DNA of 64,000 nt from Cloacibacterium normanense (GTDB lineage: Bacteria; Bacteroidota; Bacteroidia; Flavobacteriales; Weeksellaceae): the NCBI RefSeq assembly GCF_002943105.1, contig NZ_PTPZ01000007.1, forward strand, positions 1 to 64,000. The letters run 5' to 3'. The notes beneath the pieces are model-generated. The model was not told the DNA's origin. It made no database searches and worked only from the letters and a program-made list of their open reading frames with translations. A program made the position numbers and the translations under genes. Positions 24,891 through 26,011 of this stretch are shown here, piece after piece (positions within the stretch are counted from its first letter, which is position 1; each line of letters opens with the position of its first letter).

Positions 24891-24923
24891 AATCCTTAAA
24901 GGTTTCTAAAACCTTTAAGGATT
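24891..24923 (+). terminator. Terminator of aspS
   Basis: Perfect 15-bp stem AATCCTTAAAGGTTT / AAACCTTTAAGGATT with a 3-base loop, then A-rich sequence rather than a clean T-run; the next hairpin at 24946 provides the T-run. Confidence 0.75.
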
Positions 24924-24986: not shown

Positions 24987-25028
24987 TTAACATCGGATAA
25001 AACTAAAATTAAATACATCCGATATTAA
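24987..25028. promoter_or_regulatory. Putative fic operator (12-bp inverted repeat)
   Basis: Arms TTAACATCGGAT (24987-24998) and ATCCGATATTAA (25017-25028) are complementary at 11 of 12 positions. The right arm falls where the -33 element would be relative to the -7 box at 25040. A similar pair of arms lies inside the gene at 25349-25388. Confidence 0.65.
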
Positions 25029-25039
25029 GAAAAATTTCT

Positions 25040-25047
25040 TACCTTTG
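25040..25047 (+). promoter_or_regulatory. -7 promoter box of fic
   Basis: TACCTTTG ends 4 bases before the fic ATG, so transcription should begin at or within a base or two of the start codon (leaderless mRNA). Confidence 0.6.
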
Positions 25048-25051
25048 CCCA

Positions 25052-26011
25052 ATGAATTGGCAAAATTATCCTTATCACTTTGAAGGTTTAGAGAAACATC
25101 TCGAAAGAATTCTGCAAAAAAAAGCAGAATTGGATAAATTACGTCCAATTCCGAGTTATGCTGTGAAAAGCATCAAAGAAAGTTTAATGCTAGAATGGAC
25201 GTATAATTCTAACAGCATCGAAGGAAATACTTTGACACTTCACGAAACAAAAATGGTAATTGAAGAAGGTTTCACCATCAAAGGAAAATCTTTGAGAGAA
25301 CATTTCGAAGCGATAAATCATCAGGAAGCCATCGAATTTGTAGAGTCATTAATATCGGATAAACAAAATTTAAACAAAACCGATATTATGAGAGTTCATT
25401 ATTTGGTTTTACAAAAAATTGAAAAAGATTTTGCTGGAATGTTCAGAACTTCTGGTGTAAGAATTTCTGGAGCAAATTTTACTCCACCAAACGCTTTTAA
25501 AGTAGATGAACTGGTAACAGAATTAATCGACTGGGCAAATTCTTCAGATATAAATATTATTATAAAAGCGGCAATTTTTCACCACAGATTTGTTTGGATT
25601 CATCCGTTTTTCGATGGAAATGGTAGAACTGTACGTTTGATTTTCAATCTTTTATTAATGAGAGAAGGATTTCCTCCTGCAATTATCCTCAAAAATGACA
25701 GAAAAAAATATTATGATGCTTTAAACTTAGCAAATAATGGAGATTATTCTAAAATTTTATTATTAGTTCTTCAAGCTTTGGAGAGAAGTTTAGACATTTA
25801 TTTAGGTTCTCTTAATAATACGTATGACAATTATCGTCCGATTTCTAATATTGTAGAAGAAGAAAGACTTCCTTATGGACAAGAATATGTAAGTTTATTG
25901 GCTAGAAAGGGAAAAATAGACGCTTTCAAGGAAGGTAGAAATTGGCTTACAACCAAAGAAGCTGTTCTAGATTACATAGAAAAGCGAGAAAGAAAAAGAA
26001 AATTAAATTGA
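25052..26011 (+). CDS. Fic family AMPylase-type protein with C-terminal DNA-binding-like domain
   Basis: 319 residues. The Fic core motif HPFFDGNGRTVR (184-195) is intact, with catalytic His184. The N-terminal helix has SNSIEG (S53-xxx-E57-G58), the self-inhibitory motif of class II Fic enzymes. The C-terminal ~40 residues (YVSLLARKGKIDAFKEGRNWLTT, in pieces YVSLLARKGKID and GRNWLTTKEA) look like an excisionase/MerR-type helix-turn-helix. It would transfer AMP (or another nucleotide group) to a protein target, with possible DNA binding. No antitoxin gene adjoins it. It is flanked by near-identical terminators and has inverted repeats both at its promoter and inside it. Confidence 0.9.
   Translation: MNWQNYPYHFEGLEKHLERILQKKAELDKLRPIPSYAVKSIKESLMLEWTYNSNSIEGNTLTLHETKMVIEEGFTIKGKSLREHFEAINHQEAIEFVESLISDKQNLNKTDIMRVHYLVLQKIEKDFAGMFRTSGVRISGANFTPPNAFKVDELVTELIDWANSSDINIIIKAAIFHHRFVWIHPFFDGNGRTVRLIFNLLLMREGFPPAIILKNDRKKYYDALNLANNGDYSKILLLVLQALERSLDIYLGSLNNTYDNYRPISNIVEEERLPYGQEYVSLLARKGKIDAFKEGRNWLTTKEAVLDYIEKRERKRKLN
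25349..25388. promoter_or_regulatory. Second putative fic operator, inside the coding sequence
   Basis: Arms TAATATCGG (in 25349-25360) and CCGATATTA (25380-25388) are a perfect 9-bp inverted repeat. The CGG-to-CCG span is 27 bases here and 28 at the promoter copy, and the spacers are similarly A-rich. Confidence 0.45.

What the first reader, a model, noticed from the sequence alone, without database searches (positions are those of the whole stretch)
24987..25388. Fic gene with paired inverted-repeat sites, one at the promoter and one inside the gene
TTAACATCGGAT...ATCCGATATTAA overlaps the expected -33 region; TAATATCGG...CCGATATTA lies about 360 bases further, inside the coding sequence, with nearly the same spacing (28 versus 27 bases) and A-rich spacer. 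The protein has a C-terminal segment like an excisionase/MerR HTH. Promoter plus intragenic operators would allow DNA looping and autorepression of a potentially toxic AMPylase.
Basis: partly seen in the sequence, partly recalled or inferred. Interest (0 to 1): 0.6.

Follow-up and report, generated by a model that had tools for sequence, protein, structure and literature searches.

The report
Fic enzyme with self-repression operators
A bacterial enzyme gene of the Fic family carries in front of it, and in some relatives also inside it, a mirror-image DNA site that the enzyme's own DNA-binding tail probably grips to turn the gene down; the front site is kept in nearly all relatives examined, the inner one only in a small group.

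Summary
Both palindromes exist and are the only good copies of this motif in the window. The promoter copy (24987-25028) is conserved far beyond chance: TTAATATCGGATA-N15/16-TATCCGATATTAA stands before 81 of 83 related fic genes with upstream sequence and 104 of 106 in an extended set; 162 flank control windows reach at most 17/26. Of 11 family genomes (296 searched) with a strict symmetric copy, 9 have it at fic and 1 in a fic remnant. The protein is a class II, FICD-like Fic with a highly conserved C-terminal winged HTH. A Chloroflexota relative with that domain has other arms with the same 16-bp gap. The site most likely serves autorepression of a probably leaderless promoter, as shown by experiment for Yersinia CccR (PMC9755527). 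The intragenic copy (25349-25389) is real but clade-limited: complete in 8 of 13 genes of one clade, plus one remnant. Codon shuffling (p 0.0005-0.0015, related genes) and synonymous conservation argue moderately against accident. It is perhaps an auxiliary operator; looping is untested and centre distances show no common helical phase. Kind: new variant of a known kind.

The parts
24987..25028 (.). promoter palindrome (operator 1): arms 24987-24999 and 25016-25028, 16-bp A/T-rich gap; -65 to -24 relative to the ATG
   Evidence: same motif at 81 of 83 relatives, 104 of 106 in the extended set
25040..25047 (+). -7 promoter element TACCTTTG (TAnnTTTG), 4 nt before the ATG, so the mRNA is probably leaderless
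   Evidence: rule that the G of TTTG is at -5 from PMC6847099 (passages)
25052..26011 (+). fic gene, 319 aa, class II Fic protein with C-terminal winged HTH
25208..25225 (+). inhibitory motif S-N-S-I-E-G (residues 53-58)
   Evidence: S53, E57, G58 invariant in 61 aligned relatives; same motif type as TSAIEG and SARIEG in PMC10628234 and PMC9755527 (passages)
25349..25389 (.). intragenic palindrome (operator 2, function inferred): arms 25349-25361 and 25377-25389, 15-bp gap, codons 100-113
25601..25636 (+). Fic active-site motif HPFFDGNGRTVR (residues 184-195)
25841..25984 (+). C-terminal winged HTH (residues 264-311): helices 264-271, 277-285, wing strands 291-294 and 297-300, helix 302-311
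   Evidence: AlphaFold2, block pLDDT 81-85 there; HTH_17 below its cut-off
25937..25939 (+). codon of R296 at the tip of the wing; R or K here goes with the inner bases of the arms, not significant after correction for relatedness

Best explanation
The gene encodes a FICD-like class II Fic enzyme fused to a winged HTH. A dimer puts its two HTHs on the two arms of the promoter palindrome, about 29 bp centre to centre; this covers -65 to -24 of a probably leaderless promoter and keeps RNA polymerase off: the enzyme represses its own gene and, as far as the motif tells, little else. In one clade a second copy of the site arose in the coding sequence (codons 100-113) and perhaps works as an auxiliary operator, by a loop between bound dimers or as a roadblock. 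Shown here: motif, positions, conservation, near-confinement to fic loci, clade limits of the second site. Inferred: binding by the protein, repression, dimer geometry. A role of the intragenic copy is inferred at about 0.5, looping at about 0.3; the figure given as confidence is for promoter autorepression.
For: Promoter motif in 81 of 83 relatives with upstream sequence (79 with gap 15/16); 162 of 162 true control windows at 17/26 or less; 104 of 106 in the extended set. Own genome: a loose pattern finds the two fic sites and two places inside unrelated open frames. Family: strict pattern in 15 of 296 genomes; of the 11 symmetric, 9 lie at fic, 1 in a fic remnant, 1 alone. HTH with many invariant positions. 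Chlorohelix homologue with C-terminal HTH_17 (27.0 bits) has 17-nt arms of other sequence with the same 16-bp gap; 0 of 100 shuffles as good; of 9 plasmid homologues without any HTH_17 match, 8 show nothing (48-100 of 100 shuffles as good). R296K goes with altered inner bases: both arms not GGAT in 16 of 23 K rows, 3 of 81 others. Second site: 8 genes at codon-shuffle p 0.0005-0.0015; synonymous conservation rank 4 of 305 in the clade of 13 (2 of 305 without L012), against 46/310, 272/303, 69/304 in three clades without it. Precedent: CccR binds AGATAATCAT-N26-ATGATAATCT by its HTH and represses its own gene (PMC9755527, passages).
Against: No binding data. The strict pattern misses 15 of the 24 family genomes that have fic, the own genome included, and hits 5 of the 272 without fic, 3 of these on one strand only; the loose pattern's reversed control also hits 2 of 7 genus genomes. 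A solitary near-perfect palindrome (25/26) stands without fic (L110). In the de novo palindrome test 13 of 100 shuffles equal or beat the window's own promoter, one homologue without HTH (L. gasseri) reaches 2 of 100 inside the preceding gene, and Leptotrichia, with an N-terminal HTH_17, has nothing (59 of 100). R296K: 4 for, 1 against, 4 ties in independent pairs, 4 pairs on starred branches; other HTH residues show raw links too. Second site: rank 9 of 305 with 7 chosen rows, left block alone 25 of 314; no excess within the genus (rank 27 of 305; 0 of 26 arm sites against 73 of 957 variable); 3 genes keep only the left arm, L010 and L012 have neither. Centre distances differ by 120 bp in L042.
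Confidence: 0.75

Rival explanations
1. The promoter palindrome is the operator, but the intragenic copy is an accident: codons for S-D and D-I lie near a match, and drift in an A/T-rich gene completed it once in a clade.
For: D111-I112 are nearly invariant in the family, giving part of the right arm free; the site is limited to one clade and decays there; no excess conservation within the genus.
Against: Codon-shuffle p 0.0005-0.0015 for the 8 full sites, which are related genes; synonymous rank 4 of 305 in the clade of 13; two other lineages have second copies elsewhere: behind fic in Halpernia, tandem upstream in L068.
Confidence: 0.4
2. Another DNA-binding protein of the phylum, not Fic, binds the palindrome.
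For: No direct binding evidence for Fic; a solitary palindrome stands in a genome without fic (L110).
Against: The symmetric strict palindrome is nearly confined to fic loci in 296 family genomes; fic has different neighbours (window: aspS and a putative transporter; Halpernia: DNA ligase and helicase), so the site goes with fic; other arms with the same gap before the Chlorohelix homologue.
Confidence: 0.12
3. The palindromes work as RNA hairpins rather than as protein sites.
For: The arms could pair in RNA; the intragenic copy is transcribed.
Against: The promoter copy lies upstream of the inferred start of a leaderless transcript, so that promoter does not transcribe it; the bases ATCG are kept in at least 102 of 104 rows in each arm, not merely complementary.
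Confidence: 0.04
4. The second sites control other promoters: an internal promoter in the window, the helicase gene in Halpernia.
For: In Halpernia the second site ends 90 bp (L020) and 12 bp (L029) before the first ATG of a ligase-associated helicase gene.
Against: No TAnnTTTG box was seen by eye close behind the intragenic copy in the window.
Confidence: 0.15

Closest known systems
CccR of Yersinia pseudotuberculosis (PMC9755527; passages read)
   Same: Class II Fic with C-terminal HTH; dimer binds a widely spaced inverted repeat in its own promoter and represses itself (experimentally shown there).
   Different: CccR arms AGATAATCAT with a 26-bp gap, here TTAATATCGGATA with 15-16 bp; no DUF4172 match here; CccR is secreted and AMPylates FtsZ, unknown here; no second operator in the passages read.
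CbFic2 of Coxiella burnetii (PMC10628234; passages read)
   Same: Class II Fic with C-terminal HTH that binds DNA; binding alters dimerisation and (de)AMPylation.
   Different: DUF4172 and DeoR-type wHTH; random DNA was used, no specific operator in the passages read; Foldseek rank 35.
FICD (HYPE) of animals
   Same: Closest solved relatives of the Fic core (phmmer 2.5e-38 to 6.7e-44, worm homologue included; Foldseek ranks 1-27, 31-36% identity); class II inhibitory motif.
   Different: Sequence matches end by residue 261: the HTH is outside them; eukaryotic enzyme.
BT_2513 of Bacteroides thetaiotaomicron (PDB 3cuc)
   Same: Fic fold in the same phylum.
   Different: 27% identity; its promoter was not examined.
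lac repressor with an auxiliary operator inside lacZ (recalled, no call)
   Same: Promoter operator plus a distant operator in coding sequence.
   Different: There looping is established; here only the two sites are seen.

Membership tests
Class II Fic protein | Fic domain with HPFx(D/E)GN(G/K)R motif | tested here: met
   Pfam Fic 82.1 bits, cut-off 24; HPFFDGNGRTVR at 184-195; 61 of 61 aligned relatives match Fic
Class II Fic protein | inhibitory motif (S/T)xxxE(G/N) N-terminal to the Fic core (rule recalled, examples) | tested here: met
   S53-N-S-I-E57-G58, S, E and G invariant in 61 relatives
SoFic equivalog (NCBIfam NF046030) | score above curated cut-off | tested here: not met
   47.6 bits against 550
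HTH_17 domain (PF12728) | score above curated cut-off | tested here: not met
   18.3 bits against 27; 22 of 61 relatives match at E 0.01; order of elements in the model is that of a winged HTH
CccR-type self-repressing Fic | C-terminal HTH on a class II Fic | tested here: met
CccR-type self-repressing Fic | widely spaced inverted repeat at its own promoter | tested here: met
CccR-type self-repressing Fic | N-terminal DUF4172 (stated for CbFic2 and related structures in the passages) | tested here: not met
   only Fic and HTH_17 matched up to E 1
CccR-type self-repressing Fic | dimer binds the repeat and represses | not testable with these tools
   needs gel shift, footprint, reporter
Repression by DNA loop | two operators held by one oligomer; phase dependence | tested here: inconclusive
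   34.3-34.5 turns in 7 loci, 45.9 in L042, 97.8-97.95 in Halpernia (10.5 bp per turn assumed); binding untested

The most novel reading that the evidence does not exclude
Operator DNA is an allosteric partner of the enzyme as well as a gene switch: Fic dimers bridged between the promoter and the intragenic site are held in one catalytic state (inhibited or deAMPylating) and leave the DNA as the AMPylating form, so that repression, loop and enzyme activity form one feedback device, with second sites evolved separately inside, behind or upstream of the gene.
Probability: 0.12. Interest if true: 0.75.

Novelty: new variant of a known kind. Interest (0 to 1): 0.52.

Why it matters
In the papers searched only CccR appeared as a Fic protein with a defined operator bound by its own HTH. 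Here is a family whose operator can be read from sequence in many Bacteroidota, which gives ready sets of natural protein-operator pairs for binding tests and makes it testable whether DNA sets the catalytic state of such an enzyme. The intragenic copy is a clean case for asking whether a second operator in coding sequence is kept by selection.

Tried and rejected
Looping phase: no common helical register. HTH-operator covariation: strong in raw counts, not significant after correction for relatedness; the outer TTAA as control gave 2 for, 2 against, 5 ties. Intragenic conservation within the genus: no excess. Mobile element: one phage record at 40% identity, five viral contigs with 30-42% over parts, 46 plasmid records all under 60% identity. 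The palindromes of G059 and G072 looked like counter-examples; G059 proved to be a fic remnant, G072 stays unexplained. PADLOC names (SoFic, PDC-S04) match the Fic part of the protein; no evidence of defence was sought further. One search read L003 and L005 on the wrong strand; corrected. The two promoter misses are L026 (17/26, a visible variant) and L035, where I had placed the start codon inside a degenerate site (by eye); L056 has no upstream sequence and was left out. The one control window at 24/26 was L074's own promoter site. The homologues of the set are the best 80 of 434, a capped list. The careful tree did not finish; the quick tree was used, and the fork of L012, the genus and the other 8 rows is unresolved. 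In one search Persicobacter (L173) was not scored. Before the final filing I added to check which homologues have an HTH and to name neighbours; this moved Leptotrichia out of the group without HTH. Papers: six searches on Fic operators listed none on an operator of a Bacteroidota Fic, judged from titles and abstract starts; two on intragenic operators (no paper; 82, 12 of 29 listed) were not followed.

Full report
What is there. The gene at 25052-26011 (+) encodes a 319-aa Fic protein (Pfam Fic 82.1 bits) between aspS and a putative AspT/YidE-type transporter gene. Its core is closest to animal FICD among solved structures (phmmer 2.5e-38 to 6.7e-44, worm homologue included; Foldseek ranks 1-27). 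It has the class II inhibitory motif S53-N-S-I-E57-G58 and the active-site motif HPFFDGNGRTVR. The model (mean pLDDT 88) shows a C-terminal winged HTH at 264-311. HTH_17 is matched only below its cut-off (18.3 of 27 bits; 22 of 61 relatives at E 0.01), yet the stretch around YGQEYVSLLARxGKIDAxKEGRNW holds many invariant or nearly invariant positions.

Promoter site. Of 84 loci (L001, L003-L005, L007-L086; the 80 are the best of 434), L056 lacks upstream sequence. Of the other 83, 81 have TTAATATCGGATA-N-TATCCGATATTAA at 18/26 or better, 79 of the 81 with gap 15 or 16. The two misses are a visible variant (L026, 17/26) and L035, where a degenerate site was hidden by my choice of start codon. 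Controls: 163 flank windows, of which one (24/26) was L074's own promoter; the other 162 reach at most 17. In the extended set of 107 proteins, 104 of 106 with upstream sequence reach 17/26 with gap 15/16; L035 and L141 do not. The bases ATCG (positions 6-9 of the arm) are kept in at least 102 of 104 rows in each arm; the next G in 100 and 86. By record titles the loci come from Weeksellaceae, Flavobacteriaceae, Sphingobacteriaceae, Chitinophagaceae, Saprospiraceae, Cytophagales and others.

Nearly confined to fic. In the own genome the loose pattern finds the two fic sites and two places inside unrelated open frames; it hits 6 of 7 genus genomes, two of them without fic, and its reversed control hits 2 of 7. 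Among 296 family genomes, drawn from a larger group, 24 have fic at E 1e-60. The strict pattern occurs in 15. Eleven of these are symmetric (both strands): nine lie at fic (one of the nine, G041, behind the gene), one in a fic remnant (G059, L109), one alone between two convergent genes (G072, L110; 25/26; no flank similarity to the fic loci held). Four match on one strand only. The strict pattern finds no site at fic in 15 of the 24 fic genomes, the own genome among them, and hits 5 of the 272 others. Its reversed control hits 2 of 296. Fic is patchy: 27 of 395 order and 11 of 395 phylum genomes at E 1e-80.

Promoter and mRNA. TAnnTTTG follows the start of the right arm in 70 of 81 rows and lies 3-5 nt before the ATG in 44 of these 70. 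In F. johnsoniae the G of TTTG is at -5 and 87% of predicted transcripts have leaders above 10 nt (PMC6847099, passages); leaderless mRNAs are 5.5% in F. psychrophilum (PMC9723704, passages). So this fic is probably leaderless and its operator covers -65 to -24, not transcribed from that promoter, which speaks for a DNA site.

Same device, other letters. A Chlorohelix (Chloroflexota) plasmid homologue, 43% identical over 19-317, with a C-terminal HTH_17 at the cut-off (27.0 bits), has AGATAATTACTACGAAT-N16-ATTCGTGGTAATTATCT ending 18 bp before its ATG; in the 13-nt arm test 0 of 100 shuffles were as good. Ten other plasmid homologues were scored. Nine have no HTH_17 match: eight show nothing (48-100 of 100 shuffles as good), one (L. 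gasseri) reaches 2 of 100 within the preceding gene. The tenth, Leptotrichia, has an N-terminal HTH_17 and shows nothing (59 of 100). The window's own promoter gets 13 of 100 in this test, so the test is weak in A/T-rich DNA, and Chlorohelix is one positive example.

Covariation. R296 lies at the wing tip. Both arms depart from GGAT in 16 of 23 rows with K and in 3 of 81 with R or N. In independent pairs on all branches the commonest outcome was 4 for, 1 against, 4 ties (outer bases as control 2, 2, 5); on starred branches only 4 pairs exist. Many other residue-base pairs also correlate in raw counts. Suggestive only.

Intragenic site. Full copies (21-23 of 26, gap 15, codons 100-113) occur in L001, L003-L005, L007, L009, L042 and L049; L008, L119 and L145 keep the left arm; L010 and L012 have neither. 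These 13 rows form one clade on a quick tree with moderate support (89), in which L012, the genus and the other 8 rows are unresolved. L024 has a left arm and L046 a weak site. A fic remnant in G059 keeps the copy (23/26) although promoter and codons 1-99 are gone. Against 2000 synonymous shuffles per gene the eight full copies give p 0.0005-0.0015 (0.0005 is the floor); of 83 genes tested 13 are below 0.05 and 9 below 0.01. The genes are related, so these values are not independent. Synonymous conservation of the two blocks ranks 1 of 305 in the eight chosen for the site, 1 of 307 in eight rows chosen by the tree, 27 of 305 in the genus alone; 2 of 305 in 12 rows, 4 of 305 with L012, 9 of 305 in seven rows of which I chose one or so per species; the left block alone ranks 3, 5 and 25 of 314; in three clades without the site the two blocks rank 46/310, 272/303 and 69/304.

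Other second sites. Both Halpernia loci carry a copy (24/26) directly behind the fic stop and before a ligase-associated helicase gene; L068 has two tandem copies upstream. Centres lie 360.5-362.5 bp apart in seven loci, 481.5 in L042, 1027-1028.5 in Halpernia, 54 in L068: no common phase.

Reading. The promoter site is very probably the operator of the Fic protein itself; CccR gives the experimental precedent (PMC9755527, passages) and CbFic2 shows DNA altering activity (PMC10628234, passages). The intragenic copy is about as likely as not an auxiliary operator; accident is a serious rival. Looping is a hypothesis.

Noticed in passing
window 25040-25051; L001, L003-L005, L007-L086 upstream of fic: TAnnTTTG box 3-5 nt before the ATG in 44 of the 70 loci that have the box: fic is probably often leaderless, in a phylum where that is uncommon.
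   Followed up: partly
L020 2963-3004, L029 2965-3005: Second palindrome directly behind the fic stop and in front of a ligase-associated DEXH helicase gene in two Halpernia genomes.
   Followed up: partly
L109 2441-2664: Fic remnant in a family relative: promoter and codons 1-99 gone, large internal deletion, intragenic palindrome still 23/26.
   Followed up: yes
L110 2360-2400: Solitary near-perfect palindrome (25/26) between two convergent genes in a genome without a fic match; flanks unlike the fic loci held.
   Followed up: partly
L068, 130 and 76 bp upstream of the start used: Two tandem palindromes, centres 54 bp apart, in Pedobacter fastidiosus.
   Followed up: no
L167 679-728: Chlorohelix plasmid fic with 17-nt arms and 16-bp gap; its outer letters AGATAAT equal those of the CccR operator.
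   Followed up: partly
L175 upstream of 351: Leptotrichia plasmid Fic with an N-terminal HTH_17; the stretch before it holds ATTCCGATA twice as a direct, not inverted, repeat (by eye).
   Followed up: no
L006 958-2316: A second, different Fic protein (452 aa, 36% identity) in one genus relative; no comparable palindrome in the stretch searched upstream.
   Followed up: no
window 24891-24923: Perfect 15-nt inverted repeat with a 3-nt loop behind aspS, terminator-like.
   Followed up: no
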